Assembly: GCA_033807695.1 (NCBI GenBank)
Contig: CM066300.1
Coordinates: 310,001 to 374,000 of the forward strand
Origin: Daedaleopsis sinensis
Taxonomy: Eukaryota > Basidiomycota > Agaricomycetes > Polyporales > Polyporaceae
Direction: 5' to 3'
Length of the DNA stretch: 64,000 bases
Part shown: positions 3,001-18,789 of the stretch, piece after piece
Numbering within the stretch: position 1 is the first letter of the stretch
Layout: the number at the start of each line of letters is the position of its first letter
Translations under genes and position numbers: made by a program
Notes under the pieces: generated by a model
The model's database searches: none
Seen by the model: the letters and a program-made list of their open reading frames with translations, nothing else
What the model was told of the DNA's origin: nothing

Positions 3001-3044
3001 TTGATTGTATGCAAACGTTCGCGTCGAAGAGAAGGAGAAGTCAT
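1..3044 (-). CDS. Helitron Rep-helicase, N-terminal part (runs off the left edge)
   Basis: This is the replicase of a rolling-circle Helitron, which nicks and ligates single-stranded DNA. The minus-strand frame from the ATG at 3044 is open for 1014 codons to the window edge. The order is: a low-complexity Gln/Asn/Pro start, an Ala/Glu/Arg-rich helical stretch, a Cys zinc ribbon (CSKCG near 2265, then CC), and the Helitron_like_N domain. The HUH motif LPHIHLLIFL has its two His codons at 857-855 and 851-849. The paired-Tyr region KYIHKYIYKGHD is at about 425-475. The Pif1-type helicase half must lie left of position 1. The reading frame stays open upstream to a stop at 3209, and a ccttcag acceptor-like site near 3132 suggests that a 5' exon may be spliced on. 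The base composition is clearly more A+T rich than the neighbours. Intactness cannot be judged without the missing part. Confidence 0.93.
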   Translation of the reverse strand, partial: MTSPSLRRERLHTINPIPPPQPHFRAENAGGLSGFSSYNLGNGFQLQPPFQPVSMGQSFGGNNAQPGGSNLGVGNAAYPRAVNQPMQPMAGPSSGPRFVQAYGRDWNAGLMANFNARHAERVRNRGVRNSDHTSNGNNISEGNSGHHGANQVQGMSSGSTHQAHAALRNREAQERIDQQRIEAEAVAAARLRLQEEQAARRAAETAAHAEAQRILNEQIAAQQAAEAAAAAAQRALPRGRRNYTEPNSRHNLGAMNVVCSKCGALHFIDERLSSSSKRNPRFGVCCLQGQVSLPLPRLPPQPLKDLMDGTDARSGEFLKNIRKYNVAFAFTSTAAKLRQGILDVPGPYSFIIQGNIYHRMGPLQAQHADGRNAKYAQLYIYDSQMALTRRTSDIYSTLNATTMRELQDMFMRENPLVPLYKAAYQWFMEQPAEQRGQLSARIVLQPSADGRRYNLPTSDEVAAIIPGSGENEDVDKHRQIVLHLQDGGLKYISHLNPLYAPLHYVLLFPRAEQGWHTAISSVAGPDGNVRAPNVSQRCYYAYVLHPRHIQNNEVDYLFRGGRLLQQYMVDAWASCEASNLFWIRHNQKQIRADLYQGLVDAVHAADQNAEGVDLANQGQNVILPSTHPGSSRHMYQLFQDSMAICRRFRKPDIFLTMTANPRWPEVEEALLKLAGGDPSRKQQPADRPDIVARVFHLKKQMLLKMIKDGFFGELAADVYTIEFQKRGLPHIHLLIFLKEPYKIRDATMVDSIVCAKLPDPVTQPLLYDTITRCMLHGPCDQRCKDSDNAPCAKRFPRPYVAETTLSEDGYPVYARPEDGRTFTDSRGNVFSNKDVVPYNPHLCATFNCHINVEICASVKAVKYIHKYIYKGHDRATVEVGQEQQQGPTDEIREYVDARYIGPPEAMWHLQEWSMHEESPAVYRLPVHLKNEQTVYFDPEDIAEDVVDRVSSQKTQLTEWFTANIAYPEARNILYQNFPESFVWNKKTRTWSPRQRSFAIGRIHFVHPSAGDRFY

Positions 3045-3315
3045 CGAATTAAGTCGATTATCTCTCTCATTTGCCCTCTCTGCTGCCCGATCACGCTCAG
3101 GGGTCCGTCTATAGTATGTTAGATTAGCTTGACTGAAGGGAAAGATAAGTAATCCAAACCTACGGGGACTGCGGAGGTGAAGGGTTATTTGTATTTTGAT
3201 TTGAATTCATTGTTGAGGTTTAACTGTAAGAGATATAAATAAAAGTAACAGGTCAGACAACAGACATGTTTTCACTTACCGGGATGTGAAGGGAGAGTAT
3301 GTGAAGCTGTGAGAT

Positions 3316-3577
3316 AACACAATAGTATAGACCTAGTAGAGCAGCGGATTGCTGAAGAAAACATTAGAAAAGCGGACTTAGTTGATTAGAATCCATCACT
3401 TACTGATTTTGGTAGCTGCTGTGCAGGGCAGAAGCCGTGGGAACACAGTAGTATAGACCCAGTAGAGCAGCAGAGTGCTGAAGGATACATTAGAACCATT
3501 AGAAAAGCGGAGTTACTTGATTAGAAACCCTCACTTACTAATTGTGGTAGCTGCTGTGCAGAGGAGAAGCCGCGGGA
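3316..3577. repeat. Two tandem copies of a 126-bp unit in the Helitron 5' flank
   Basis: Unit 1 (3316-3441) and unit 2 (3442-3577) both start aacacARTAGTATAGACC and both end near gtagctgctgtgcag. Unit 2 has a few extra bases. Read on the minus strand, each copy carries a GTAAGT splice-donor consensus (near 3400 and 3535). More GTAAGT sites occur on the same strand near 3282 and 3655. The block lies directly upstream of the Helitron reading frame, so it may be a duplicated 5' exon-intron segment or a subterminal repeat of the element. Confidence 0.75.
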
Positions 3578-5034
3578 ACAACAGGAACAACGGACTATAA
3601 CCGGGATCATCAACTGCAGTTCTAGATCAATAAGCCAAGCCCACTTACCGGATCCTGTGGTTTGAATTGATGTTGAACGGATGGGATCAAATGTAGTTGA
3701 TGTGATCAATGATGTAGCTTAAACTGGGGTAAGCACCCATTATAAACTTATTTAGTGCACACCATCAAACTCACAGCGAATGCGGCCGGGTCTTCTCCCA
3801 TGTAGTAGGCAGACCGGGCCGGTTAGACGCCCATTGACCGGCCGCGCATGAGGCGTGAAAAGTGGTGTCCACTATATCGCGTTTTGGCACAGGCTCCCCT
3901 TGCGCGTTATTTCGGGACTGCGCACATTTCCGCAGCTTTCCTCTCCCTCTATGGGCATTCACCAGGAGCTACTATAAGAGCGATTCTTAGGTACAGGCTA
4001 TAGTAAGCCTTATTTTTGTGTGCAATTAGACTCTATAAAAGTATCTAATAACATGCTAATGAACTTCTTCGTTACTTCAATAACTTAGCGAAGGAGCGCC
4101 TCGCAAGCTCGGCGGAGATGGTCGGCGCTTAGGGAGGCGGCCTCGCAAGCTCGGCGCGCCTAAACTGGGGCCTCGCAGGCTCGGCGGGGCACATGGCAGC
4201 CACATGGCACCACGTGGGCGCCATGTGCTTCGCACATGGCAAAAAAACACCCTCGTCCCATTCTTTATAGATCCCTTCTGCCAATGCTGACCTCATCCAT
4301 TCCAGATTCATACCGTGCAAAGATATGCTGCCCTCATACTTATGTCCCTCTTAAGGCCTGAGGCCTGAAGCCCGAGGCGAAGTAGTTAGTTGCAGGTAAG
4401 TAGACTGCAATCTGCAGATCGTAGCGCTCATCTATCACCCAACCGGAGTTGCTTGCAACACATACATCAGCAAAATCGCACATCATGTTACGGGACTTAC
4501 AGAAACTTACATCTTATAGAGCAAGTTTGAAGTTGCGAAAGTGTGGCTTATAGAATGTTAGATCAAGTTACTGAACTTACGGACCTTGCGGTACTAAGCT
4601 ATACTAAGCGCCGCCCCACTACTACCTCATCTGTTGGCCATCATAAGTATGCCGAACGTAGAACACCCTCATTGGTAGGTATATGTGTGCGTAGCTCATA
4701 TAGCTACAGCCTCCTGAGGATACTTAGTACTACTAGGAAGCATTGATACTTGGAACGGGTAAGTGGCGGTTAAGCGCTTGATAATGCTTGCCCTAAACAT
4801 TCCCGGCGATCCCCGTGATGTTGACGCCAGTGTGGCACTTGAACGTTTGAACGTTTGAACATTTTTCAACTCCCCGTTCCGCATATCCTCTGTCGCTGTT
4901 AACTGTGCTCGACTCAGCTGGCTCTACTCTGCAAGTGCTCTACTGCTCTAGCCTTTTCACCTGTTACTCTGTCGACTATCTAACTTGAGCTTGACGCCTC
5001 ACTGGCAGCTTCCCTCTCTTCGCTCCGCTGCCTC
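3578..5034. other. Non-coding flank between the Helitron and the MRD1 relic
   Basis: I see no convincing gene here. The stretch 4085-4240 is GC-rich and contains three near-identical copies of cctcgcaRgctcggcg, starting at 4099, 4141 and 4171. It also has a self-complementary catg-rich segment around 4190-4240. The Helitron 5' end (an expected TC terminus reading on the minus strand) probably falls between 3740 and 4400, but I could not fix it. From 4440 onward the sequence resembles other spacer DNA in the window, including one arm of a dispersed inverted repeat. Confidence 0.5.
4463..4493 (+). repeat. Dispersed 31-bp inverted repeat, left arm
   Basis: These 31 bases match the reverse complement of 19066-19096 at 30 of 31 positions. 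The core is tacatcagcaaaatcgcac. The two arms are 14.6 kb apart and bracket both the MRD1 relic and the Gypsy element. The similarity does not extend clearly beyond the 31 bases, except for a shared tendency to carry gttac/acttac words. Confidence 0.75.
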
Positions 5035-5205
5035 TCAAGCTCGCTGTTGCCGAGACACGCACGTCATCCAAGAGACAAAAACCTTCCTCGAGCAGCATGG
5101 CGTTGAACTCTCAGTACTCGACACAGTGGGCTCGCGTTGACCACCACGATCTGACCGCATCATTCTAGTCAAGAACATCTCATACGGCACATCTGCTGCT
5201 GACGT
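5035..5205 (+). pseudogene. MRD1-like gene relic, 5' piece (cut by the Gypsy insertion)
   Basis: MRD1 (RBM19 in animals) is a multi-RRM nucleolar protein needed for 18S pre-rRNA processing. In one frame this stretch reads as the linker and the start of an RRM: HVIQETKTFLEQHGVELSVL, then a stop, then IILVKNISYGTSAADV. The frame breaks at the last codon and resumes after the right LTR as RALFEDHGELRRVL, so the retrotransposon landed inside the RRM. A 2-base insertion in gagacacgcacgtc and the in-frame TGA near 5138 show that this copy was already, or has become, non-functional. Only a fragment of the gene is present: the first RRMs are not found to the left. Confidence 0.75.
5202..5205. repeat. 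Target-site duplication ACGT, left copy
   Basis: The four bases ACGT directly before the left LTR are repeated directly after the right LTR (17898-17901). The MRD1 reading frame continues across this duplicated site once the element is removed, which confirms both element boundaries. Confidence 0.8.
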
Positions 5206-6112
5206 TGATGGGGTAACTCTGGGTCGCTGGGCGAAACACACACCCAAACGAGCACGAGATCAGCTACCTAGTAGGGTGCGAGGTGGAGGACAGGTTCCCG
5301 GTGTAGTCGCTCTTCTTCACGTAGCCCGTCGACGATAGACAAGGAAGTTGAGCAACTTCAGACGGAAGTCAAGCAACTTCCGTGGGTGAGGCTAGTCTGC
5401 AAGAGGAGGTTTGAAGACGGACGGTCTTCAATTGAGTGTCGACTAGATGATTCTTGGACTCGGACTCGATCTCTGGAGCTACTGCGCTGCTTTGCTGGGC
5501 CGCAATCCCGCTGACTTATATACTGTACAAATCGTCACCAAATAAACTACAACTATCCTACCAATCGTCCAATCATAGGAAACCCTGCTCCTCCCACGCT
5601 CACGTCGCGATCCTCCTCTCCTGAACCCCTACGGCGCACTCCGGTGGTTAGGTAGGTGTTTGCACCGAGCCTATCACGTCGCCGCTCGACTTGCATCCGC
5701 GGTCACGAGAGCGCTTAGTCTTGTGGCGCGTCACCACGTGATCGCGTCTGAAGTCCATCCGCTCGTCTTCATAGGCCTCGGAAGGCCGTCCCCCTCACTC
5801 CCTTGTCTTCCGGGCCTCTTCCGACGACCTTCGTACCAATTACTGGACTCCGTGGCGGTCGCCTAGACCAGGCCCTCGATCGATCGCCTCCTCTGTCCTG
5901 GCTAGAGCTCTGGCGACCTCGGTCAGCCGCCGGCAGCTCGGCATCGGCTCCTTCGACCCTTGGAATGGCATGTCTCCGTACTCGCTCCTTCGGTAGTCGC
6001 TCGCCTTCCTTGTGAAGCCGCTCGTCTTCATACTGCGTGAATTGACTGACGGGCGCGAATAGTGATGTGCTGCGTGGTGTTTCCGGGGCCTAGCTGGTCC
6101 TGAGGCTCATCA
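5206..6112 (-). repeat. Left LTR (3' LTR of the element)
   Basis: This 907-bp long terminal repeat is bounded by TG...CA. It is the downstream LTR because gag-pol read on the minus strand. It contains a minus-strand TATATAAG at 5525-5518 and a short dyad, ggaagtcaagcaacttcc, near 5367. The small open frames inside it are identical in both LTR copies, as expected for a repeat, and are not genes. Confidence 0.95.
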
Positions 6113-6122
6113 CCTCCCCCCC
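6113..6122 (-). promoter_or_regulatory. Polypurine tract adjoining the 3' LTR
   Basis: On the minus strand the sequence directly upstream of the 3' LTR is GTGGGGGGGAGG, an all-purine run that would prime plus-strand DNA synthesis during reverse transcription. The position immediately against the LTR boundary is diagnostic. An identical 14-base version, cctcccccccactt on the plus strand, recurs at 10325-10338. Confidence 0.85.
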
Positions 6123-6153
6123 ACTTGCATTCGAACCGTCCTCGGTTTGTGCG

Positions 6154-6160
6154 TATATAA
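6154..6160 (+). promoter_or_regulatory. TATA box for the first antisense cassette gene
   Basis: TATATAA lies 37 bases before the ATG at 6197 and just inside the 3' LTR boundary, on the strand opposite to gag-pol. Similar TATA-like words precede the other two cassette genes: TATAAA at 6782-6787 (43 bases before the ATG) and TTAATAAA at 7585-7592. This suggests that each gene is transcribed from its own promoter. The assignment rests on sequence and spacing only. Confidence 0.6.
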
Positions 6161-6196
6161 ACTCCCTCGTTCCATCCTCGGTTTTCATCCTTCGCA

Positions 6197-6767
6197 ATGT
6201 CTGCCTTCATCTTCCTCAACGTCCCCATCCTCACGGAGACTGTCCGTCAGCTTGAAGTCGCGATCTCTGAGTTCGAGGCTCTTGCTGCCGCTCGTACTGA
6301 AGAGGACGTTGGAATCATCTACGATTCTTACGACCATATCGCTGAACTGGTGGTACGTCGTCCTCCTTCCGCGTGTAGGCCCTCGTCTTCGTGGCTGACT
6401 GTCTTCATGGCAGGACACTTTGATCACCTTGGGGGACGATGGCGAGGTTGCCGCGGACTTCGTGAAACGGACCGAGAATACGATCACCGAGGGCTGGCCT
6501 GCCTTGGCTGACCGTCAGCTCTTCCTTTTCCAAGAGCTTGTCGCCCGGTCCCGTCGATGCGCTCGTCGGGCCGACCTCGATGCTCGTCGCATTGCCTGTC
6601 AGCAGCGGCTCCGGAAGCAACTCTGCGCGCGCCGCGTCCTCAATCGCGCCGGAGGATCCTTGATCACGGAGTCTATTCTGGTTGATGCCCGGATCCGGAA
6701 GGTCGAAAAGGAAATGGAGGAGATAGATCAGGAGTTTGCCAGCCTCCGAGAGGACATCCACTTTTGA
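6197..6767 (+). CDS. Retrotransposon antisense cassette gene 1 (169 aa, unknown)
   Basis: The exons are 6197-6352 and 6414-6767, with a phase-0 intron (gtacgt...ggcag, 61 bp). The product is a small, charged, mostly helical protein. It starts MSAFIFLNVPILTETVRQL, has an Arg-rich middle, and ends in a Glu/Lys-rich segment likely to form a coiled coil (VEKEMEEIDQEFASL). I recognise no domain. It is encoded inside the Gypsy element, antisense to gag-pol and first in a head-to-tail trio with the genes at 6830 and 7658. The presence of a proper intron, stop and upstream TATA argues against a chance antisense frame. It could be a captured host gene or an element-specific accessory protein. Confidence 0.7.
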
Positions 6768-6829
6768 GTAGCCGCGTGTCGTATAAAGCCGCTGTAACTG
6801 CCTTCGAAGTTCATCAACTTCCATTTTTC

Positions 6830-7484
6830 ATGTCGTCGACCGTCCTCCCGCGTACGCTCGCCCTCCAAGTCAGCTCGCACCGCGAGTTGGCCCTTGAACT
6901 CCTCTCCCCGCTTCGTGCGCACATTGTTGAGCAAATCGAGTTCTTCGAGACGGTATCCGTCGACCACGGCTGTCCCCGCGTTGTGTATGAACACGCGCTT
7001 TCCCGTTTAGGACAACTTTTGGTGAGCTTCTCGGCCTGATGCTTCTCGCCCTTGATTGACACCTTCCCAGTATGGTTGGAGTATGCTTCATGACGGCCTT
7101 CTCGTCGGCGTTTCCGACCTACTTGCCCGCGTGTCCGTCGCCATCGACCAGTGTTTCTTCTCCAACGGCCTTGAGGCGTTCCTTGTCGACCTGGTCCAGA
7201 CGCACCGCCTGCCGTACCGCCTCCACTTCCTGGACTCAGTGCATGCCACTCTGCAACACGAACTTCAACTCCTGGAGGTCATGCGCGACCTGGCGCGCGA
7301 CGACCGGTACCGCGTTCATTTTTCGGAAGTACTCGCGCGTCTGGAATTGGTCGCCGCTGAACTGCGCGGGGTGCGTATTGAGCAGTCCGCCCTCCACGCG
7401 GCCATCAAGAAGCTGGAAAGGTCGCCGTCCTCTCTGTCAGACGAGGATGAAGTCTTCGGTTCTATTCCTTTGATGTGCGACTGA
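6830..7484 (+). CDS. Retrotransposon antisense cassette gene 2 (201 aa, unknown)
   Basis: The exons are 6830-7021 and 7071-7484, joined by a 49-bp phase-0 intron (gtgagc...tcccag). The start is MSSTVLPRTLALQVSS and the end is an acidic Ser/Asp/Glu tail. The body is rich in Leu, Glu and Arg with long predicted helices (HATLQHELQLLEVMRDL), so it is probably another coiled-coil protein. Its size, architecture and intron position resemble those of the gene at 6197, and the two may be diverged duplicates. No enzymatic motif is visible. It starts only 62 bases after the previous stop, with TATAAA in between. Confidence 0.7.
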
Positions 7485-7657
7485 TTGGGGCCGTCCTCGA
7501 TCGCCGTCGCGCGGAGAGCGCTTAGATTACCGCATTTGGACGTTGTACTTCACGGTTCCCTTCACGTTCTTCTGACTGTCGCCCTTAATAAACGTTTTGG
7601 CCTTCTGGTTGTCCGCCTTCGTGCATTCTCCTCTCGTCTTCTCATCCATCGCCCACC

Positions 7658-9921
7658 ATGTCCGCTTCCAACCGTCGCTCGTCTTCCAACGTCGCCGCCA
7701 CTCGCTCGTCTTCCGATGCTCCTCGGCGACCGATCCCCAAGGAGCTGTTCAAGTGGCTCCCGTTGCAATTCACGCGTGAATCCGATCGACTTGGCTGTGA
7801 GGAGCCCGTTCCTACTACGCCTGACGAGCTTCGCGATCAGGACGCCGCTCCGCTGACGATCAGCGACTTCCGGGCGATCTTGGAAGAGTACACCGACGAC
7901 CAGCTCGCTACGTTCTCATATGGCACGTTCAAGGCCATGTTTGATCGTATCGTCATGGCTCTGGTACGCCGTCCCGGCCTTCCAAGTCTTGTCTCGCTGA
8001 CACATTCCTTTTTCGCAGCACCGTCTCGTCCCGGAGTGGAATTGGTACCTGGATCCCCTGCTCCTCGCCGCGCTCCCGACGTTCGAGTTTTACGCGCCGC
8101 CCTCCCTGGTCTCGGAGTTCTTTCGCTCGTACGCGCTGACTTCTCGCCGGTTGCGGCTGTTCGCGGTTTCGAGCACCGTAGCGGAGTCCCCCCTGGAGAT
8201 CGACATCGCCTTCCAGGCTCACCGCCTTCGGCTGGGCTTCTTCGAGCGTAAGTACTTACGTTCTTCGCCCTCACTGTTGCTTGACTAAGACCGCTCCTCC
8301 TTGCAGTGAACTGGTACCACGAGATCATCCAGCCACGCTGGATGGAGGTCGCCGATTACCCGCCCGACATGCGCGCCTCTCGGGAAACCATCGACACTCG
8401 CGTCGACCAGTTCTTGCCTCTGCTGTCCGGCATGCGTTACGTCCCGGTCCTCGACAAGAAGCGTCTCACGAGGATACTCGTCACACGCCCCACTTCCTCG
8501 TCAACCGCGCCTTCGTCTGACCCCGATGCCCTTCCTGGCGACGCCTTCCTGGCTGCGATGGTCACTGGTGTCGAGTACGTTCCGGAAGAGGAAGCTTCGG
8601 ACGACGAGCCTCTGGCCGACACTGCCCAGCGCGACTCTCCTCGTCGTTTCCGCACACGCTCCCCCCTCTCGCCTGACCAACCTCCTCCTCCTCCGCTGTC
8701 TCAGCTGCCGCTGAAGAGGAAGAAGACGCCCCTCTTCTTCAGCACCGATGAGAGCGAGCCGCCCAAGAAGCCCGTCGACAAGGGAAAGCGTAAGGCGGTT
8801 TCTCCTCCCGCGGACGATTCCGACCGCGATGCCGAGGGCGAGGTCGACGATGAAGGCGAAGAAGAAGTCGACCAACTCGAGGAGGAGGAGCCTCCTAAGA
8901 AGAAGTCCCGCACCTCGCCCCGCAAACGTCCGCCTCCCGTCGTCGAGTTGTCGCCTAGGGTCAAGAAGCGCGACAAGAAGCCTCCTTCCACTCGCCAAGG
9001 TTCCGTGGAGTTGTCCAGCGCCGTGCAGATCGAGGGCGACTGCGACGAGTGCCGTCGCGCCGGGGTCACTTGCAGACGTCCGGACCCTTCCGCGTTCCGC
9101 TGCAACTTCTGCAAGAAGAAGGGGAAAAGCTTCTCTTGCGCGTACGACCACCTGAGTGTCCAGGGGACGGTCAAAGGTCAGTACCTTCCCCCTACTTCTC
9201 TTGGTCTTCTTGCTGACTTCTTGTCTTTTTTCTAGTGCACGCCCGTATCGGCGCGATGTACAACGGCGTCGGGTTTTCCTTCCGGGAACCCTCGCAGCTG
9301 CCGCCCGCCGACCGTCTTCTCGCCGTCGACTTCGTCCGCCAGTTCGAGAGGAACTCGCACAAATTCCTCTCCGTCGACAAGGCCGCGCTCCAGGAGTGTC
9401 TTCGTCCGAAGACCATCCGGAAGGACACCCCCGTCTACCCGTACCCGGAGGGTCCTACGCGTTATCCTTCGCTCGACGAGAAGGGCCGCCTGCTCGAGGA
9501 CTATGGCAACAGCAAGGCCGAACCCGACGACTCTACGCCGCCTCCTCGTTCGTCTCGCGCTTCTGGCAGCGTCAAGAAGGAGAAGACGAGCCCCACCAAG
9601 TCGACTTCCCAACCGGCGACGCCCCTCAAGATCTCGATCAAGTCCTCATCTTCCAAGCGCAAGTCGCCGGAGCCGGTCAGCTTCTCGCCGGAGGTCGTCG
9701 CGAAGGTCAACCATCTTCGCTCGCAGGTCAGCCTCGCACGCGCGCGCATCGTCGAGGACTTGGTGTCCATTCGGCAGCTTTCCCGCCGCGAGACTCGACA
9801 GACCCAGCTCGATTTTGGCGTGAAGATCGAAGGGTGCGACGACGTGCGGTCCTTCAAGGACTTGGTGGCGTCCAATGGCTATCGTGAGGATCTCCTCGAG
9901 CTTCTTCGCAATGCCGAGTAG
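7658..9921 (+). CDS. Retrotransposon antisense cassette gene 3: Zn2Cys6-type cysteine cluster protein (696 aa)
   Basis: There are four exons: 7658-7963, 8019-8247, 8307-9176 and 9236-9921. All junctions have GT-AG ends and keep frame. The N-terminal 250 residues form a Trp/Tyr/Pro-containing globular region (HRLVPEWNWYLDPLLLAALP). The middle is highly charged with several Lys/Arg clusters that could be nuclear signals (KRKK, KGKRK, PPKKKS). A cysteine cluster follows at residues 424, 427, 434, 444, 447 and 456, with spacing C-x2-C-x6-C-x9-C-x2-C-x8-C. That fits the fungal Zn(II)2Cys6 consensus, including basic residues after Cys2. The C-terminus has a Ser/Lys linker and a helical, likely coiled-coil segment. 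A sequence-specific DNA-binding or nucleic-acid role is the natural inference. The cluster is internal, which is unusual for classical Zn2Cys6 factors. Confidence 0.75.
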
Positions 9922-10324
9922 GGACTTCTTCGACGCGCGCGCGTCCACGGACTTCTTGTTATTAGCTTTTCTTGTCATCTCCTGCTTGGTCGTCGTCTCG
10001 TCCTGTCGTCGCGCGGCTCGCGCTGTCTTGTTTTCTGTTTTTCGCATATATCTCCTCTGCTCGTCTCTGTCTCCCGCGGACTAGTCTCTCCGTCTCCCTC
10101 CTGTCGCTCTGGGCTTTGTAATGTCTCCTTCTGGTTTTCTTTCCCGTATCCCGTCGCGCTCAGCTTCTGTTGTCCGTCTTAATCTGTACTGTATCTAGTA
10201 TCCCGAATGTATCGCATCGCCTTCTGCTCTTCTTCTTGTGTGATCTCCGAGATGACCGACGCGCGAAGCGCCTCTTGAAGCGCTCTTCGGCCTGTAGAGG
10301 AATTGACTTCCGTAGTCAAGCGAC

Positions 10325-10338
10325 TTCCTCCCCCCCAC
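10325..10338 (-). promoter_or_regulatory. Second polypurine tract, between pol and the cassette
   Basis: On the plus strand, cctcccccccactt at 10325-10338 repeats exactly the polypurine tract that adjoins the 3' LTR (6113-6126). It lies 34 bases beyond the pol stop codon (10372), where the tract of an ordinary Gypsy element would be. It could be the ancestral tract, left in place when the cassette DNA was added, or an internal second priming site. Confidence 0.6.
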
Positions 10339-10371
10339 TTTTTCCATTTGACGTCCTCGTCAACGTGAGTG

Positions 10372-13300
10372 TTAGCCGTGTTCGTCGTCGTCTGCTAATC
10401 CTTCCTCTTCGTAGTTTTCTGTTGTGTTTTCTAATTCTTGCAGTCGGCTCTGTGGTGCGTCCAGTTCCTCAATATTGAAGTTGATTGGGTCCTCACGCGC
10501 TAGGTAGGGGATGATTCTGAAGGCCGCTATGGGTCGATCGAAGACGGTCCCATCGAGTTCTGCAATGATGTACGCGCCGCCTCTGTTGCGCGATATCACT
10601 ACTAGAGGGCCTAGGTACCGTGGTCTCATCTTCCTGTTGAGCGACTTCTCAATTGCCGTGTTCCGCATCAGAACCAGCCTCCCTCGCTGGAAGTTGAAGT
10701 CTCGGATGGTTGCGCTGTGTTCCTTCTCGAATAGCTGCGCAGCTTGGACGCGTGTTCGGTAGACGGTTGACCGCAACCGCGCTATGTCCTCCGGTCTCTT
10801 CTGCAAGGCCATCGCCCTGTTGGTGATCAACTCCGTTGTGGACACGAGCTTCGTCGGTATAGGCAGCAGGTACGTGGCTTCTGTGATGTCCATGGGCAGG
10901 ATTGGATCCGTCCCAGTTACCGCGTAGTAGGGTGAGCACCCTAGTCTCCTGCGTACTGTGATTCGGTCCGCCCAGAGTACTGAATATACCCGCGCCACCC
11001 ATTGCGTCGTATCACCTTCGCATGCTTTGAAGAGCGCGTCCCGGACGTGGAAATGAGGCCGCTCGACGATTCCGTTCGCTCGTGAGTTGTATCCTGAGAT
11101 CCGTATGTGCTTGACGTGGTATTGCTTTGCCAGGTACTCCAACGCTGCAACCCATGGACTTCCGTTGTCTGAAACTATCTCGGACAGCGCTCCCCATCTG
11201 TACAGCAGGTCTTGATAGATCCAGTCGCCGACCGCCTTCGCTGTTTGGACTGTACTTGCCCGCCCTTCAGCATAACTTGTGGTTGCACACCTCGCATGGA
11301 AGAAGTGCTTGTACGAGCCAGGCATGTCCATAGAGTCGACGTGAACTCGTACGAACGGCGCCGCAGGATAGGAAACTGAAGGTGGTATGTAGATCCGCGT
11401 AGTTTGTCGAATTTGACATTGGTGGCAGCTTCTCACATACCAGGCCACATCCGCCTTCATTTCTGGCCACCAGAACCGTTCGGCCACGAAGGAGATTGTC
11501 GCCTGTACGCCTCTGTGTCCTATGAAGTCGTGCATGCTCACGAACGCTTTCGCCCGTAGTTCTGGGGGTAGTACTCTCCTGTGGTTCCCATTCTTCGCTA
11601 TCTTCCATAGTCGGCCATCCTTCACGAAGAATTGTCCTGCGTATTTGACGAACGCATCGAGCTCCTTCTGAACCAGCTTCGGTCTTCTCTTGGTGCACAG
11701 AAATTCGTAGACGTTCGCTATTCTGTGGTCAAACTTCTGGGCAACCTCCGTGCGCGGTACGATTGCGTAGTCAATTTCTGGAATGTCCGGTAGCTTGCCC
11801 GCCGTCCCGCTTGTCTGCTGCATGAGCGCCCTGAAGCCCATCGCTTCCGTCTTGAAGTTGCTCGTTTTCCGCTTAACCTCGTGTTGTAGAGGAGCGTCTC
11901 CCAGGTGTGGAGGTGGATTTATGAGGTGTGTAAAGCCGTACATGTTGTCCACCCAGTCATCGAATTCTCCGTTGTCTGCTTCTTCTGGTTCGTCTTCAGG
12001 CTGCGCAGGTCGTCGGCTGAGACCGTCCGGTCCATGGGAGATTCCAGGTACGTGCCGCATTTCGAAGTGGAACATATTGATGCTAATGATCCACCTATTC
12101 ATGACTGCATTCGGCGCGACATCCGGATTCTGGATCATGGCTTTCGTAGATGTCGCATCCATTTCTACTATTAGGTTTCGTACACCGACCAGCCAGAAGC
12201 GGAGCGCCTTCAATGCTCGGTACAGACCATATAGCTCGAGCTTCGGTTGTGAGAATCTGGCTTCCCTTTCGTTCAAGGTAATGGATCCAAAGCGGTTGTA
12301 GTATCGTTTCCGCGGGTCTTCCGGATCCTCTTGACACAGCTGGTAGCCGACCGCGATATAAGAGGTGTCCACCGCTAGAATTACCGGGGCCTTCGACTCG
12401 TAGTTGATCGACTTCAAGGCCGGGGATTCCACTAATGCTGTCTTTAGATCCTCCATGGCCTTGTCCTGTTCCTCTCCCCATTCGAACGGTACGTCCTTCC
12501 GCGTGAGCTTGACTAATGGTGCGGCCTTCTTCCCGAAGTTCTTGATGAAGATCCTCCCAACGCCTACCGTTCCCAGGAACGACCGTACTTCGGAAACATT
12601 TTTACACGGTCCCCATTTGAGTACCGCATCCACGCAACCTCTCTCTGGAAGACGGCCTTCCGGTGTGCATCGATGTCCCACCGCTACGAAGTCGCGCGCC
12701 GCGCAGACGAACTTTTTGCCCGAGAAGGTACCTCCCGCATGTTTCATCCGCTGTACAATCCTGTTGACGTCTTGCATGTGCTCCCAGATGTACCTCCTGA
12801 TGCCTGGATTCTCCTTCATACACTCGAAAGAACCATCTTCCCGTTCGTAGGACGACTCCGGTCCAATGACAGGTACGTCGTCGATGTAGGGAATCGTCGT
12901 ATCCGGAATTTCGGGCTGCAATATGTAGGTCACGTCGTCGTGGAAGATGGGTACTGAATTCGTCCATCCCATTGGTAGCGTCGTCAGTCGCATGGCTCCG
13001 AAAGGCGTTTGGAAGGTCGTGAGGTCGCGCGATTCTTCGTCCAGGATCCTCTCGTCGTATCCAACGTATAGATCCAAGGTCGTCCCGCACGCACGCCCTG
13101 CAAAGCGTTCTGCCATGTGGTCGGGTATCGGTGGTACACCGCTGTGTTGAATAGAGACTCTGTTGAGCGGCTCCAGACTATGGACGATCCTCAGACTCCC
13201 GTCCTTCTTCAGCACACAGAACCACCTGGATCGGTAAGACGCATTTGAGGGTTCGTATACGCCTGATTCTATTTTCTTCTTCATGATCTCACAGATTTGT

Positions 13301-14142
13301 CGGTAGGTTCCGGGTGGAATGGGGAAATTCGTTTCAATCCACGGAGTGTGAGGCACAACCGCAAACTTCACTGGTGGGAACATGTCCGTCCTGAAGTGGC
13401 CACGCTCGCTGTCTTCCCAAGCGAATCCCTGCTCCTGTTTGCACATCATGTCGTCTAGCAAAGCTAGCTCTTCTTCCGATAGGTGAGCATTGACTTTGTG
13501 GAGCTTCTCGCGTCGTTCAGCTGTGTACCGCCCAGTTGGTTCAAAAGGCTTTGGATTGAGGTCAAGCGGCTTCATCCCTTCGAGAGGGTCGCCGATTATC
13601 TCCCGTACAATTCTGTACTGCTTGGGAAGCTCCCCAATCACTGGTCGTACTTTCTTATCCACTGGCTTGTACTTCTTCTTCGATTTCACATAGCTGCGTA
13701 CGCTCTCGGGGTCCTCGGTGGCTGCTTGCCGCTCGTCGTCTTCTGGAAGTTGCTCGCCTTCCGCCTCTTGTTCTTGCTCGCTCGGCTCGGATTTCTCGCT
13801 CGCTCTTGCTGCTTCGCTGGACCTAGACCGGGTTCTGACTGCTCTTCTGCCTCTGGTTTTCGTAACGTATACTGGGAGTGCTCGTCCTCGGAAGAGGGCT
13901 CGGTCGACTTCGCGAGGTGGTTGTCGGCTCCGCATTCTATCCCCTTCCGATTCCTGGATCGGTACTTTCGAGAACATGGTTTTGATTTTCTGCTTTGTCT
14001 CGGAGTCGTCACAGGCCGATAGATATGCTGACTGAATTGTGGAATTTTCTAGGTTTTCTAAGTCCTTGTACGCCGTCGTGAAAACTTGACCCGTTCTTGC
14101 GTCATAGTCGAGGACGAGAGCGACCTCTCCCTGACTGTTCAT
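10372..14142 (-). CDS. Gypsy Pol: reverse transcriptase, RNase H, integrase (1256 aa)
   Basis: This is one uninterrupted frame. The N-terminus is charged and non-catalytic. Reverse transcriptase follows, with the first catalytic Asp in LDLYVGYD (about residues 356-363) and the YIDD box at about 419-422. RNase H begins at VDTSY (Asp about 592). Integrase carries an HHCC zinc finger, HDFIGH at 871-876 and CHQC at 906-909, and a D-D-E triad at about 936 (VHVDS), 992 (SDNGS) and 1027 (GIVER), with the expected 35-residue Asp-Glu spacing. The C-terminus has the usual basic domain and no chromodomain. The frame starts with ATG at 14142, one base inside the Gag stop codon. All catalytic residues are present, so the polyprotein looks functional. 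Confidence 0.96.
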   Translation of the reverse strand: MNSQGEVALVLDYDARTGQVFTTAYKDLENLENSTIQSAYLSACDDSETKQKIKTMFSKVPIQESEGDRMRSRQPPREVDRALFRGRALPVYVTKTRGRRAVRTRSRSSEAARASEKSEPSEQEQEAEGEQLPEDDERQAATEDPESVRSYVKSKKKYKPVDKKVRPVIGELPKQYRIVREIIGDPLEGMKPLDLNPKPFEPTGRYTAERREKLHKVNAHLSEEELALLDDMMCKQEQGFAWEDSERGHFRTDMFPPVKFAVVPHTPWIETNFPIPPGTYRQICEIMKKKIESGVYEPSNASYRSRWFCVLKKDGSLRIVHSLEPLNRVSIQHSGVPPIPDHMAERFAGRACGTTLDLYVGYDERILDEESRDLTTFQTPFGAMRLTTLPMGWTNSVPIFHDDVTYILQPEIPDTTIPYIDDVPVIGPESSYEREDGSFECMKENPGIRRYIWEHMQDVNRIVQRMKHAGGTFSGKKFVCAARDFVAVGHRCTPEGRLPERGCVDAVLKWGPCKNVSEVRSFLGTVGVGRIFIKNFGKKAAPLVKLTRKDVPFEWGEEQDKAMEDLKTALVESPALKSINYESKAPVILAVDTSYIAVGYQLCQEDPEDPRKRYYNRFGSITLNEREARFSQPKLELYGLYRALKALRFWLVGVRNLIVEMDATSTKAMIQNPDVAPNAVMNRWIISINMFHFEMRHVPGISHGPDGLSRRPAQPEDEPEEADNGEFDDWVDNMYGFTHLINPPPHLGDAPLQHEVKRKTSNFKTEAMGFRALMQQTSGTAGKLPDIPEIDYAIVPRTEVAQKFDHRIANVYEFLCTKRRPKLVQKELDAFVKYAGQFFVKDGRLWKIAKNGNHRRVLPPELRAKAFVSMHDFIGHRGVQATISFVAERFWWPEMKADVAWYVRSCHQCQIRQTTRIYIPPSVSYPAAPFVRVHVDSMDMPGSYKHFFHARCATTSYAEGRASTVQTAKAVGDWIYQDLLYRWGALSEIVSDNGSPWVAALEYLAKQYHVKHIRISGYNSRANGIVERPHFHVRDALFKACEGDTTQWVARVYSVLWADRITVRRRLGCSPYYAVTGTDPILPMDITEATYLLPIPTKLVSTTELITNRAMALQKRPEDIARLRSTVYRTRVQAAQLFEKEHSATIRDFNFQRGRLVLMRNTAIEKSLNRKMRPRYLGPLVVISRNRGGAYIIAELDGTVFDRPIAAFRIIPYLAREDPINFNIEELDAPQSRLQELENTTENYEEEGLADDDEHG

Positions 14143-14166
14143 CAGATCCTCGAAGCCCGAAAACCC
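14142..14166 (-). promoter_or_regulatory. Gag-Pol junction: TGATG overlap plus a GGGTTTT slippery heptamer
   Basis: The gag stop TGA (14144-14142) shares its last base with the pol ATG (14142-14140), the arrangement used for coupled termination-reinitiation. Eighteen bases before the stop codon, the minus strand reads G GGT TTT at 14166-14160 in the gag frame. This fits the X XXY YYZ rule, and a -1 slip there leads directly into the open pol frame. Either mechanism would make Pol at reduced level. I could not judge whether a stimulatory RNA structure follows. Confidence 0.6.
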
Positions 14167-16556
14167 TCGACTCTGAGTCCATAACTCGGAGAGTCTCCAT
14201 GTGCGTAGGTCGGTAGCGTCAATTCGCGGTTCGAGTTAGGGCAAGTGACGGTAATTGACAATTGGCCATCCATAGAGTTGCTCGACCTCGCACGCATCAC
14301 CGTCATGAACGGCCTTCCTAGGAGGATCTGGTAAGGCGCTGCCTTCACAACATGCATCTGGAGGTAGACCACGATCCCGCCACCTAATTCCACAGGCACG
14401 TTCTTTGCTAGACCGAGTGTCATGTCGACCGTCCCATTTGCGCTGATCATCCTCCTTCGCTTGGTAGGATCGTAGGGGATCTTCAACGCATAAGCGATTT
14501 GGTCGTTTATACCGACGATCTGGGACCCATCGTCGAGTGTACACTCTGTCGGCGTGTCCGTTCGAGCTACCCAGGTGAACAGCGACCTCAGCTTCTCCGA
14601 TTCCGAGGCTACGATGGTTGACTTCCGCCGACTGCTCGCAGGATAGCCTTGTCCCGGAGCTACATACGGTGCATTGTGCGACTTTGGCTCCTCGTCCTCG
14701 TCCTCGCTGCCTTCATAGTCCAGGTCTACAAATGCAAAGGATCCAAGCGTCGGCCTTCTAGTCCCTGAGGATGAACTTCCTGCTGTCTGGAGGTTATCTT
14801 CCGGGAAGTCTTCGTCTTCAGCGACTTCGGTCACTAGTACCTTGTTCCGAGGCCGCTCGCCTTCCCGGTTGGTCACTTCCTGCAGTTGCTCGTCTCTAAC
14901 TTGCGTTCGCCTGAGAGCTGTGGCCTCATGCACTCGCTTCCTGAGTCCTGGAGAAATACTGAGTAGCTCGGCTGGTGACACTGTGATACTCTGGCTGTCT
15001 CCGAAGCTTCGGTTGAAGACTCTTTCTTCCGCGGTCGGGTCGATGATCGCTGCGGTCCTTCTGACCGGTGGTTCGTCCTTCTTCGGCAGTTCCTGGCCTC
15101 TGGGTACCACAGTCGGCGCATAGGGATGGAAGGTCTCTTCAGGCTCTTTTGCCCTCGTGTCCCAGGTAACGTGCTTTTCCTTCTCCTTTCCCTTCTCTCT
15201 CGTTGGCTGGTGAGGCGGCTGATCACGCTCGGGCGTCCCTGCCCGCGTGTCGTCCCTCCCTTTCTCCGAGTTGCGCGTAACACGTCGAGGCCGCGTCTCT
15301 AGCTCGACTCCATCAAAAACCTGCCGTCCCGAGCGAGTGTTCATGCGCTCTTTAACCATGTTTGCTTTGTGCATGAGGACTTCTAACTCCTCTTCCAAGG
15401 TACGCTCGTCTTCCTGCATCTCGAACTGATAGATGTTGCTCATGGTTCCTCGCGCTCGTTGGTTTGGGTTCTTTTCGTGCCAAGCATTGACTCTATCGCG
15501 CATACAGTTCCCTGGCAGACTACGAGGGATCACACCGCCTCCTGGTAGGATGATTTTGTCGTATACGTCCTTCCGGATGAGTCCCGCCGTCATGTCCTCT
15601 GCGACTTTGGGGCACGTCTTCAACCGACATCCCGGTAGGCCACAGTAGATGCATTCGTCGTTAGCGGGTGGATTACGTCCGTATAGGCCCCCTTGCTGCT
15701 GCTGGTACCTTCCCTGGGGAGGTTGTGGTGGTGGAGGGTATTGTTCCCCTTGTTGCGGTGGTTGCGTGGCTTGCATCCTCTGCTGGCTCACGAAGTCGCG
15801 CATGGTCGAACTCATCATGGAGATCATCTCCCGCTTGAAGGCCGATAGATCCGGCTCGGTTTTCACCGTAACCGTGGAGGCCATGGCTGGAGCCGGAGGA
15901 TTGACTCGAGCGAGGTTACCGGACGTCGCAGTTGACCAACTTCCGATCCCGCCGAACGGGCCTCCGTCCGCCAGACAATAGGAAATTGCTTCATGCACTT
16001 GCGCGACCGTGTAAGCTTCTTCTTTGTGTTTTGCAGGCACCTGGTGTGCTAACCGCGCGGATACCGCCATTGTGTACTGCATAGGAACTAGCCGTAGCAA
16101 AGCTGTCGACGCGTCGCGCTCCGTTAGCTCTGGCTCGGTCTTCGCATGCAAGTACCGGTAGATGGGATAGAATTTGCCGTAGAACTTCATGTAGGTTTCG
16201 AGACTGGATATCCCCGTACGTACAGCTTCCCCGATGACTTCATTGTATTCTCGCAGTGTCCAGGTGTACTGGGCATCCGTCCCGAGGTAGAAGGATAGAA
16301 CCTCCGTCTTGAATTCTTCATACGTCTTCTGGGTGTCCGAGAACGTCGGCAGGGACTTCCATCGCTTGGCGACTCCCGCTGGTATGTAGTCGACCGCCGC
16401 CGCCTTGCAAGCTTGTTCATCAGTGATGCTATGCTTCTTCAGAAGTCGGGCAAGGTCGTCAAAGTACCGCTCGACGGTGTCCTTAGATTCCTCATCGAAT
16501 TGGGGCGCACTCCTTTCCGTACGCAACGGTAGTTTCGATAGATCTGCGCTAGCCAT
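14142..16556 (-). CDS. Gypsy Gag with C-terminal aspartic protease
   Basis: The first in-frame ATG (16556) gives 804 residues. The capsid-like region starts almost at once (SAPQFDEESKDTVERYFDDL). It is followed by a Gln/Pro-rich linker, a zinc-knuckle-like CX2CX4CX4C in place of CCHC (CIYCGLPGCRLKTC), charged linkers and a retropepsin domain. The catalytic triplet is in LDDGSQIVGI, with DDG where DSG/DTG is usual, and the second signature is ILLGRPF. Protease is therefore fused to Gag rather than to Pol. The same frame is open for a further 156 codons upstream, to position 17024 inside the LTR. That stretch looks protein-like (acidic and Pro-rich), but it contains no ATG, so use of a non-ATG start cannot be excluded. 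Confidence 0.9.
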   Translation of the reverse strand: MASADLSKLPLRTERSAPQFDEESKDTVERYFDDLARLLKKHSITDEQACKAAAVDYIPAGVAKRWKSLPTFSDTQKTYEEFKTEVLSFYLGTDAQYTWTLREYNEVIGEAVRTGISSLETYMKFYGKFYPIYRYLHAKTEPELTERDASTALLRLVPMQYTMAVSARLAHQVPAKHKEEAYTVAQVHEAISYCLADGGPFGGIGSWSTATSGNLARVNPPAPAMASTVTVKTEPDLSAFKREMISMMSSTMRDFVSQQRMQATQPPQQGEQYPPPPQPPQGRYQQQQGGLYGRNPPANDECIYCGLPGCRLKTCPKVAEDMTAGLIRKDVYDKIILPGGGVIPRSLPGNCMRDRVNAWHEKNPNQRARGTMSNIYQFEMQEDERTLEEELEVLMHKANMVKERMNTRSGRQVFDGVELETRPRRVTRNSEKGRDDTRAGTPERDQPPHQPTREKGKEKEKHVTWDTRAKEPEETFHPYAPTVVPRGQELPKKDEPPVRRTAAIIDPTAEERVFNRSFGDSQSITVSPAELLSISPGLRKRVHEATALRRTQVRDEQLQEVTNREGERPRNKVLVTEVAEDEDFPEDNLQTAGSSSSGTRRPTLGSFAFVDLDYEGSEDEDEEPKSHNAPYVAPGQGYPASSRRKSTIVASESEKLRSLFTWVARTDTPTECTLDDGSQIVGINDQIAYALKIPYDPTKRRRMISANGTVDMTLGLAKNVPVELGGGIVVYLQMHVVKAAPYQILLGRPFMTVMRARSSNSMDGQLSITVTCPNSNRELTLPTYAHGDSPSYGLRVEGFRASRI

Positions 16557-16969
16557 TGAATGGATTGTAGGTGGTACTACGGGTGGTAGAGCCGTAGGTA
16601 ATATTTGAGCGGCGTAGGCTAGCAGGGAAGGAAGGGGGTTCCTAGGTAGGTTGAAGGCCCCTGCGGTATGTGATAGCGTAGGTCTTGGGTTACTAATTGA
16701 TTCTGAAGTCAGGAACGGATGGTCCGGAACTTCAATGTCCTCCTGCTCGTCTTCGGAAGCGTCCTCTAGTTCGGTAAGCGGAGAGTCTGCGAAAACTGCG
16801 AAGTTGTTCTCGATAACGGTAGTGAGCTGCTCTGCTCTCTCGGGGTCTTCTGCTTCGATTTCCTCTAAAGCCTGTTCGGTTTGTCGATGGAGGCGACGGA
16901 TACGTTCGCTCCGCGTCGGCCGCAAACGTGGGATTCTTGAGCCGGAACCGGTGGAGACTGTTCTTGTAC

Positions 16970-16987
16970 CCCTCGCGGTGGGCTCCA
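16970..16987 (-). other. Possible primer-binding site
   Basis: Three bases inside the 5' LTR boundary (16991), the minus strand reads TGGAGCCCACCGCGAGGG. It starts with TGG, as expected for pairing with a tRNA CCA end. I did not identify the matching tRNA, so the call rests on position and the TGG start. Confidence 0.35.
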
Positions 16988-16990
16988 GAA

Positions 16991-17897
16991 TGATGGGGTA
17001 ACTCTGGGTCGCTGGGCGAAACACACACCCAAACGAGCACGAGATCAGCTACCTAGTAGGGTGCGAGGTGGAGGACAGGTTCCCGGTGTAGTCGCTCTTC
17101 TTCACGTAGCCCGTCGACGATAGACAAGGAAGTTGAGCAACTTCAGACGGAAGTCAAGCAACTTCCGTGGGTGAGGCTAGTCTGCAAGAGGAGGTTTGAA
17201 GACGGACGGTCTTCAATTGAGTGTCGACTAGATGATTCTTGGACTCGGACTCGATCTCTGGAGCTACTGCGCTGCTTTGCTGGGCCGCAATCCCGCTGAC
17301 TTATATACTGTACAAATCGTCACCAAATAAACTACAACTATCCTACCAATCGTCCAATCATAGGAAACCCTGCTCCTCCCACGCTCACGTCGCGATCCTC
17401 CTCTCCTGAACCCCTACGGCGCACTCCGGTGGTTAGGTAGGTGTTTGCACCGAGCCTATCACGTCGCCGCTCGACTTGCATCCGCGGTCACGAGAGCGCT
17501 TAGTCTTGTGGCGCGTCACCACGTGATCGCGTCTGAAGTCCATCCGCTCGTCTTCATAGGCCTCGGAAGGCCGTCCCCCTCACTCCCTTGTCTTCCGGGC
17601 CTCTTCCGACGACCTTCGTACCAATTACTGGACTCCGTGGCGGTCGCCTAGACCAGGCCCTCGATCGATCGCCTCCTCTGTCCTGGCTAGAGCTCTGGCG
17701 ACCTCGGTCAGCCGCCGGCAGCTCGGCATCGGCTCCTTCGACCCTTGGAATGGCATGTCTCCGTACTCGCTCCTTCGGTAGTCGCTCGCCTTCCTTGTGA
17801 AGCCGCTCGTCTTCATACTGCGTGAATTGACTGACGGGCGCGAATAGTGATGTGCTGCGTGGTGTTTCCGGGGCCTAGCTGGTCCTGAGGCTCATCA
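16991..17897 (-). repeat. Right LTR (5' LTR and promoter of the element)
   Basis: This is the second 907-bp copy of the repeat at 5206-6112. No difference was found by eye. In this copy the minus-strand TATATAAG box at 17307-17300 would drive the genomic transcript toward gag. Identical LTRs indicate little time since insertion. Confidence 0.95.
17300..17307 (-). promoter_or_regulatory. Retrotransposon TATA box
   Basis: TATATAAG on the minus strand lies about 310 bases before the end of the 5' LTR, with GC-rich DNA around it. It is the only strong TATA-like word in this orientation inside the LTR. Confidence 0.55.
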
Positions 17898-18780: not shown

Positions 18781-18789
18781 GTGAACGGC

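What the first reader, a model, noticed from the sequence alone, without database searches (positions are those of the whole stretch)
6113..10338. Gypsy retrotransposon carrying a three-gene, intron-containing antisense cassette with a Zn2Cys6-like factor
Seen directly: between pol and the 3' LTR of a complete, young-looking element lie three plus-strand genes of 169, 201 and 696 aa with five in-frame GT-AG introns and TATA-like words before each start. The largest has six Cys in C-x2-C-x6-C-x9-C-x2-C-x8-C spacing with basic flanks. Extra antisense ORFs next to the 3' LTR are known in some plant Gypsy elements (for example Grande), but an antisense, spliced cluster with a putative DNA-binding protein in a fungal element is not something I know. 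Antisense introns can persist because gag-pol RNA reads them backwards. Inferred roles: control of the element or of host silencing, targeting, or hitchhiking host genes.
Basis: partly seen in the sequence, partly recalled or inferred. Interest (0 to 1): 0.88.

Follow-up and report, generated by a model that had tools for sequence, protein, structure and literature searches.

The report
Retrotransposon with antisense spliced gene cassette
A young fungal jumping gene carries on its reverse strand a block of three genes with predicted introns that selection has kept intact in copy after copy, one of them predicted to encode a DNA-binding protein that likely controls the element itself.

Summary
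The window holds a 12.7-kb Ty3/Gypsy element on the minus strand (LTRs 907/907 identical). Between pol and its 3' LTR lie three plus-strand genes (169, 201, 696 aa; five GT-AG introns). In the same genome 34 of 34 places with gene 3 sit beside pol. In the 29 of 34 copies read, variation follows the spliced reading frame: variants shared by copies are 19 synonymous/1 nonsynonymous (g1) and 86/25 (g3), and no compared codon is a stop. Four more families, 16 elements with 74-77% identical integrase, carry a homologous antisense gene 3 at the same place. Where read, gene 1, gene 2 (one family) and three intron positions are shared too. A sister group (63-67%) has pol close against its LTR and no cassette. 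The cassette is bracketed by two copies of the polypurine tract, each next to a covarying hairpin where read: in the window, 10 of 10 elements of two families, 2 of 2 of a third. Gene 3 has a Zn2Cys6-like motif, below Pfam's cut-off. Antisense accessory genes are known (plant Grande/Retand, Botrytis Boty), so this is a new variant. Most likely it encodes a nuclear regulator of the element; expression, splicing and binding are untested.

The parts
16991..17897 (-). 5' LTR (907 bp)
   Evidence: 100% identical to 5206-6112
5206..6112 (-). 3' LTR (907 bp)
   Evidence: 41 matching places listed in the genome, a lower bound
14142..16990 (-). gag-protease open frame
   Evidence: gag-asp_proteas 26.5 bits, just under its cut-off of 28.2
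10372..14142 (-). pol: RT, RNase H, integrase zinc-binding domain
   Evidence: RVT_1, RT_RNaseH_2, RT_RNaseH, Integrase_H2C2 above cut-off
10348..10363 (-). hairpin next to the inner polypurine tract, just downstream of the pol stop
10327..10340 (-). PPT2: inner polypurine tract at the pol-cassette border
   Evidence: identical 14 bases to PPT1; kept in 29 of 29 aligned rows
6113..6126 (-). PPT1: polypurine tract at the 3' LTR
   Evidence: complete in 25 of 29 rows; 3 rows lack the region, 1 is cut by my fetch
6134..6147 (-). hairpin next to PPT1
6154..6160 (+). TATA-like word before gene 1
6197..6767 (+). gene 1 (169 aa), one intron 6353-6413
   Evidence: homologues in families F2 and F4
6782..6787 (+). 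TATA-like word before gene 2
6830..7484 (+). gene 2 (201 aa), one intron 7022-7070
   Evidence: homologue in F2
7585..7592 (+). TATA-like word before gene 3
7658..9921 (+). gene 3 (696 aa), introns 7964-8018, 8248-8306, 9177-9235
   Evidence: homologues in F2 to F5
9041..9139 (+). six-cysteine Zn2Cys6-like motif of gene 3

Best explanation
The block between pol and the 3' LTR is an antisense protein-coding module of the retrotransposon, kept by selection together with its intron-like sequences, and its largest product is predicted to be a nuclear DNA-binding protein that likely regulates the element's own transcription or shields it from host silencing. Inferred steps: each gene is transcribed from its own TATA promoter on the strand opposite to gag-pol; the introns are spliced from these mRNAs; gene 3 (acidic and basic stretches, Zn2Cys6-like motif, conserved C-terminal segment) binds element DNA, and the two small proteins act as partners. 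The introns would survive replication because the packaged gag-pol RNA carries them as reverse complement, which the spliceosome does not recognise. The second polypurine tract would prime an extra plus strand, so that the cassette would be made as its own plus-strand segment. Shown here: the gene order, the frame-specific selection, shared intron positions, the conserved place in five families, the polypurine tract duplication in four of them, and the absence of the cassette in a sister group.
For: Copy number and context: 34 of 34 gene-3 places have pol beside them; 16 of 16 elements of families F2-F5 have a homologous gene 3 antisense at the 3' end of pol. Selection: shared variants 19S/1N (g1), 9S/8N (g2), 86S/25N (g3), no stop in the codons compared (28 copies against the window); intact frames 27, 24 and 27 of 29; GT-AG ends in 136 of 138 intron rows, and where introns are missing they lie inside larger losses. 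Homology between families: 0 of 300 shuffles reach the real score for g1 (3 pairs), g2 (1 pair) and g3 (3 pairs); the intron of g1 (F1, F2; F4 three columns off), of g2 (F1, F2) and the first of g3 (F1, F2) are at the same alignment column. Polypurine tract duplicated: F1, F2+F3 10 of 10 elements, F4 2 of 2. Hairpin: 34 of 36 pair cells kept, 6 of 6 pairs with a change on both sides. Sister group: 4 elements with about 300-355 bp between the integrase match and the LTR match. Zn2Cys6: 12 of 13 PDB rows at E<=10 are Zn2Cys6 proteins, against 1 of 1 and 0 of 13 rows for two scrambled controls of five sequences each.
Against: No RNA evidence. Zn_clus scores under Pfam's cut-off (14.1 vs 21) and best PDB E is 0.031; F4 has ten residues between Cys 2 and 3, outside the recalled canonical six. 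The structure model of the motif is poor (pLDDT 44.9) and matched no PDB chain. Gene 2 is absent in F4 and is under the weakest constraint, with broken frames in 3 of the 27 rows that hold it. The second and third g3 introns are not shared with F2, and no g3 intron with F4 by column. The N-terminal part of g3 shows no detectable similarity between families. In F5 the second polypurine tract was not found by exact match. No conserved binding site was found: an LTR palindrome has CGG in 1 of 21 LTR sequences and TGG in 20.
Confidence: 0.6

Rival explanations
1. The antisense genes are targeting factors: gene 3 binds chromosomal DNA and tethers the integration complex, replacing the chromodomain of other fungal Gypsy elements.
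For: Pfam found no chromodomain in pol; a DNA-binding protein would suit; gene 3 is beside pol in five families.
Against: An antisense mRNA is not the obvious way to deliver a particle protein; insertion sites were not analysed; the sister group exists without the cassette, with an LTR pair 100% identical in one element.
Confidence: 0.15
2. The antisense transcription is what matters: it makes double-stranded RNA or interferes with gag-pol, and the reading frames are incidental.
For: Antisense RNA control is discussed for such elements in the review PMC7264820.
Against: Codon-position pattern, low dN/dS and absence of stops are not expected from RNA-level selection alone.
Confidence: 0.05
3. 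Host genes captured by chance that hitchhike with the element.
For: Introns and TATA words look like host genes.
Against: Own-genome protein searches list only places beside pol (only 64 of 102, 73 of 97 and 19 of 19 candidates were scored); five families share gene 3 at about 30% identity between the most distant ones; selection acted while the family multiplied.
Confidence: 0.05
4. An unrelated mobile element nested between pol and the LTR of an ancestor, now domesticated by it.
For: The cassette lies between two copies of the polypurine tract, and the sister group lacks it.
Against: No inverted repeats of 60 bases or more were found in 1-20000 (shorter ones were not sought there) and no Pfam match to a transposase in genes 1-3.
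Confidence: 0.15

Closest known systems
Boty-like Gypsy elements of Botrytis (antisense gene brtn)
   Same: Fungal element with an extra gene antisense between pol and 3' LTR (PMC7264820, parts 1 and 2 of 3 read; PMC8365987, passages read; the primary paper, Zhao 2011, seen only as a reference).
   Different: One gene is named there; here three genes with five predicted introns, a Cys6 motif and two polypurine tracts. Whether the proteins are homologous was not tested.
Plant elements Grande, RIRE2, Retand
   Same: Long region between pol and 3' LTR with antisense genes kept in most copies; Grande gene23 is transcribed from a promoter upstream of it and its product is nuclear (PMC7264820); Retand antisense ORFs carry TRP28, probably DNA-binding (PMC11963269, passages read).
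   Different: No TRP28 or other Pfam match here. The word intron is counted 0 times in PMC11963269 and in PMC7264820, though the latter asks to look for spliced antisense transcripts. No sequence comparison with the plant proteins was made.
HTLV HBZ
   Same: Antisense retroviral gene with a nuclear product that affects the virus cycle (passage of PMC11963269); antisense promoter inside the 3' LTR (PMC7264820). Splicing and bZIP type recalled.
   Different: Different domain; here three genes with TATA words inside the cassette. Resemblance in working only.
VANC anti-silencing proteins of VANDAL transposons
   Same: Transposon-encoded, sequence-specific anti-silencing proteins in an arms race with the host (titles and starts of abstracts of PMC10398659 and PMC5735166 seen in a listing).
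   Different: A DNA transposon (recalled); anti-silencing is only a hypothesis here.
Fungal Zn2Cys6 transcription factors (Gal4, Hap1, Lac9)
   Same: Six-cysteine spacing; they are the best PDB matches of the profile.
   Different: Score below Pfam cut-off; motif lies in the middle of the protein; carried by a retrotransposon.

Membership tests
Ty3/Gypsy LTR retrotransposon | Two LTRs, gag-protease, and RT-RNase H before integrase | tested here: met
   RVT_1 315-480, RNase H 555-690, Integrase_H2C2 859-914 of pol; the rve integrase core gave no row at E<=1
Ty3/Gypsy LTR retrotransposon | Polypurine tract next to 3' LTR | tested here: met
Ty3/Gypsy LTR retrotransposon | Primer binding site matching a host tRNA | not tested
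   TGGAGCCCACCGCGAGG follows the 5' LTR; no tRNA was matched
[quoted passage not shown]
   34 of 34 and 16 of 16 gene-3 places beside pol
Gypsy elements with antisense accessory genes (Grande/Retand, Boty) | Own promoter and expression of the antisense gene | not testable with these tools
   TATA-like words conserved; no RNA data
Retand lineage | TRP28 domain in antisense ORFs | tested here: not met
   no Pfam family at E<=1 for the three proteins
Zn2Cys6 transcription factors | Six cysteines in C-x2-C-x6-C-x5-12-C-x2-C-x6-9-C (spacing recalled) | tested here: met
   met in F1, F2, F3; F4 has x10 between Cys 2 and 3 and does not fit
Zn2Cys6 transcription factors | Pfam Zn_clus score above curated cut-off | tested here: not met
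   14.1 bits vs 21; 3 of 4 members match at all
Zn2Cys6 transcription factors | Binuclear zinc cluster fold, DNA binding | tested here: inconclusive
   model pLDDT 44.9, short helices at both CxxC, no PDB chain found
Elements with a central polypurine tract | Second exact copy of the polypurine tract inside the element | tested here: met
   F1, F2, F3, F4; not met by exact match in F5, where 4 of 4 elements show the word once
Elements with a central polypurine tract | Second copy primes plus-strand synthesis | not testable with these tools
   needs mapping of cDNA ends

The most novel reading that the evidence does not exclude
A retrotransposon lineage has built itself a reverse-strand operon-like block of spliced genes: three antisense genes whose introns have outlived the split of element families because replication copies them backwards, bracketed by a duplicated, hairpin-tagged polypurine tract so that the block is made as its own plus-strand segment, and encoding a fast-evolving zinc-cluster protein that defends the element against host silencing.
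Probability: 0.3. Interest if true: 0.9.

Novelty: new variant of a known kind. Interest (0 to 1): 0.74.

Why it matters
Retroelements that copy through RNA are expected to lose introns; here intron positions appear shared between element families whose gene 3 proteins are only about 30% identical, which makes the idea that antisense orientation protects introns directly testable. The genome offers five families with the cassette and a close relative without it, so the effect of gaining an accessory module can be compared. The duplicated polypurine tract ties the cassette to the replication mechanism, and gene 3, with dN about nine times that of the integrase region at similar dS (F2-F3), is a candidate for an arms race with host silencing in fungi.

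Tried and rejected
Host-gene hitchhiking and RNA-only function were tested by own-genome searches and codon statistics and are disfavoured. A recent cassette swap between families F2 and F3 was tested by dS: pol 0.95 and g3 1.15, so the same history; only the protein rate differs. A binding site for gene 3 was looked for as inverted repeats in the LTR: F1 has GGAAGT-N6-ACTTCC and a 21-base palindrome, but they lie downstream of the LTR's TATA word, the CGG of the first is TGG in 20 of 21 LTR sequences, and the LTRs of F4 and F6 (part) have none at arm length 8; dropped. A GAAGT-N6-ACTTC palindrome also stands before gene 2; it is broken in L031 and L014 and kept in the other 25 rows that span it; left as a lead. 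Hairpin free energies are not individually significant against shuffles (z from 0.5 to -1.7), and the hairpins were picked by eye, so the pairing percentage is inflated; changed stems with kept pairing and the shared place are the stronger points. My first hairpin count held one mistyped word, that of F2/F3, which does not occur in its source; it was corrected and recounted (34 instead of 33 of 36 cells). A possible extra gene in the cassette-less F6 element (L043) proved to be a neighbour reading into the LTR, listed next to one F6 element only. A copy (L033) whose match starts near an intron end was checked for a spliced join: its homology starts some bases inside exon 3, with unrelated sequence before it. 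The AlphaFold model of the Cys6 motif was too poor to use. One search's script stopped with an error on a fourth, optional subset after printing the three genes used here. Searches found no Rfam family and no tRNA in the window.
Full report
WHAT WAS CHECKED. A Ty3/Gypsy element lies on the minus strand, 5206-17897, with two LTRs identical over 907 bp and a shared ACGT at both flanks. Pfam finds RVT_1, RNase H and Integrase_H2C2 domains in the pol frame 10372-14142 and a sub-threshold aspartyl protease in the gag frame. gag ends in TGATG, where its stop overlaps the pol start. Between pol and the 3' LTR three plus-strand genes splice into 169, 201 and 696 aa with five GT-AG introns of 49-61 bases, none a multiple of three. 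None of the three proteins has a Pfam match at E<=1.

ARE THE GENES REAL? The genome search lists 34 places with gene 3 DNA and 34 of 34 have pol at the right distance and strand. Six of the 40 pol rows have no F1 gene 3: one at a contig edge, one short fragment, and four of other families. I read 29 of the 34 copies, the window's own included (20, 4, 5); five were not fetched. After alignment the differences of 26 copies from the window (L033 and L037 left out) at codon positions 1, 2, 3 of the spliced frames are 0.0025, 0.0007, 0.0259 (g1), 0.0112, 0.0066, 0.0154 (g2) and 0.0147, 0.0046, 0.0328 (g3), the introns 0.0405; pol in 19 copies against the window shows 0.0032, 0.0037, 0.0154. Codon variants seen in two or more rows are 19 synonymous and 1 nonsynonymous in g1, 9 and 8 in g2, 86 and 25 in g3, that is dN/dS 0.02, 0.30, 0.10; single-row variants, which include decay after insertion, give 0.22, 0.47, 0.37. 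No compared codon is a stop. Complete frames: g1 27 of 29 (two rows lack the region), g2 24 of 29 (three broken, two lacking), g3 27 of 29. GT-AG ends: 27/27, 27/27, 27/27, 26/28, 29/29; the two exceptions are one AT donor and one row with a large deletion. No precise intron loss was seen; missing introns lie in larger losses. TATA-like words before the three starts are kept apart from the first one in L031, and the inner polypurine tract in 29 of 29 rows. So the genes are protein-coding in the spliced frame, and were under purifying selection while the family multiplied; gene 2 rests on few variants.

IS THE MODULE OLDER THAN THIS FAMILY? Pol relatives in the same genome fall into groups by integrase identity to the window: F3 76-77% (7), F2 76-77% (3), F4 75% (2), F5 74% (4), F6 63-64% (3, plus one broken match of 67% and 53%), C4:4416196 at 73%, then 35% and less. 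Protein searches with gene 3 of F2 and F4 place a homologous gene 3 antisense at the 3' end of pol in 16 of 16 elements of F2-F5. I read the context for F2 (L035), F3 (L042, part), F4 (L029, L030); F5 is placed by coordinates only. F2 has homologues of all three genes in the same order; F4 has genes 1 and 3 and I found no gene 2 between them. Local alignment scores exceed all of 300 shuffles for g1 (F1-F2, F1-F4, F2-F4), g2 (F1-F2) and g3 (three pairs); mismatched gene pairs do not (162 and 74 of 300 shuffles reach the score), nor does the N-terminal part of g3 (147, 30 and 181 of 300). The g1 intron lies at alignment column 75, 75 and 78 in F1, F2, F4; the g2 intron at 64 and 64; the first g3 intron at 111 and 111 in F1 and F2; the other g3 introns are not shared. 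The relatives' splice sites were chosen by me with the homology in view, which favours agreement. Between F2 and F3 dS is alike in pol and g3 (0.95, 1.15) but dN is 0.052 and 0.455: co-inherited, with gene 3 changing about nine times faster.

WHERE IS IT ABSENT? Four elements of the F6 type have an LTR match about 300-355 bp from the integrase match: C11:2859417, C8:3633448, C8:3675232 and C9:860106 (there the LTR match is only 66-69% identical). That leaves no room for the cassette. In the first of them L043 was read (1.8 kb) and its LTR pair is 100% identical over 666 bp. C4:4416196 (L036, read) shows no cassette and C5:2308740 has no gene 3 match beside it.

THE POLYPURINE TRACT. In F6 the LTR is preceded by the tract and a hairpin, on the side where pol lies by coordinates. 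In the window hairpin and tract follow pol at 10363-10327, then comes the cassette, then again hairpin and tract at 6147-6113 next to the LTR. The two tracts are identical over 14 bases. F4 has another sequence, identical over 15 bases at both ends of its cassette, in 2 of 2 elements. For F2 and F3 the tract word occurs 26 times in the whole genome (reversed control: 1); 20 of these form 10 pairs that bracket the cassette in 10 of 10 elements, 6 lie elsewhere. In F5 the F4 word was found once per element, at the LTR side, in 4 of 4, and not at the pol border by exact match: a departure or a diverged copy. The hairpins read (two of F1, two of F4, one shared by F2 and F3, one of F6) keep 34 of 36 pairs with both-sided change in 6 of 6 positions (shuffles of the 3' letters reach the covariation score in 0 of 500); they were picked by eye and single energies are not significant. 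The hairpins at the LTR-side tracts of F2, F3 and F5 were not read. In the window the combined pattern of stem, four-base loop and tract occurs on the minus strand at these two places only, and once on the plus strand at 26909 with another loop. I read this as an insertion of the cassette together with a second tract between ancestral tract and LTR; that the inner tract is used as a primer is inferred.

WHAT DOES GENE 3 ENCODE? The six cysteines are invariant in F1-F4 and in the database relatives P0001 and P0002 that I aligned; P0003 has them too. Zn_clus matches 3 of 4 members, best E 0.05, 14.1 bits against 21. A profile of six sequences lists 13 PDB sequences at E<=10, 12 of them Zn2Cys6 proteins, best 0.031 (CBF3 subunit B, AlcR and the like counted as such from memory). 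Of two control profiles made from five of the six sequences (F4 left out), scrambled with the cysteines kept, one lists a single row, Leu3 at 1.1, the other 13 rows, none Zn2Cys6. The motif model has pLDDT 44.9 and no PDB match. So Zn2Cys6-like is likely, not shown. In the protein collection (about 5.8 billion) four relatives were listed, P0001-P0003 for gene 3 and P0004 for gene 1, all from one source label (lgn) without a name; for gene 3 only the 7995 candidates sharing most words were scored, and split exons can fall outside the length limits, so more may exist.

HOW IT LIKELY WORKS. The antisense orientation would explain how introns coexist with reverse transcription: the genomic RNA carries them as reverse complement. 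A nuclear, fast-evolving DNA-binding protein made by the element itself would resemble in working HBZ of HTLV and the VANC proteins of VANDAL transposons, and the proposed role of plant Grande and Retand antisense proteins (PMC7264820 parts 1-2; PMC11963269 passages; listing entries of PMC10398659 and PMC5735166). I therefore favour regulation or anti-silencing of the element; targeting of integration is the main rival.

NOVELTY. [quoted passage not shown] PMC8365987 passages, PMC7264820). Literature searches, of which I saw the listed titles and abstract starts, showed no fungal element with a multi-gene antisense cassette with introns, a Zn2Cys6-like protein or a duplicated polypurine tract. 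Most subscription papers are not held; the primary brtn paper was seen only as a reference. I file it as a new variant of a known kind.

CHANGES AFTER RE-CHECKING. 

Noticed in passing
window 3-3044 (-): Open frame of at least 1014 aa running off the window with a Helitron_like_N domain (E 7e-62): a Helitron next to the Gypsy element.
   Followed up: partly
window 34152-35076 and 59119-60051; 33467-34007 and 47490-48030: Dispersed repeats in the window, 85% identical inverted and 95% identical direct; not classified.
   Followed up: no
window 14142-14146 (-): gag stop and pol start overlap as TGATG, which suggests termination-reinitiation rather than frameshifting.
   Followed up: no
LTR 5341-5432 and 17126-17217: Two palindromes in the LTR downstream of its TATA word, GGAAGT-N6-ACTTCC and TTGAAGAC-N5-GTCTTCAA; a related GAAGTTCATCAACTTC stands before gene 2 at 6806.
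   Followed up: partly
G000 C11:2858398-2866733 (L043): F6 sister element of about 8.3 kb with pol close against the LTR, useful as a cassette-less control.
   Followed up: yes
L036 (G000 C4:4416100-4422100): Pol relative of 73% identity with a stop codon and no recognisable cassette; probably a decayed copy.
   Followed up: no
G000 C9:1137318-1161617: Three gene-3 places of the window's family lie within 25 kb of each other.
   Followed up: no
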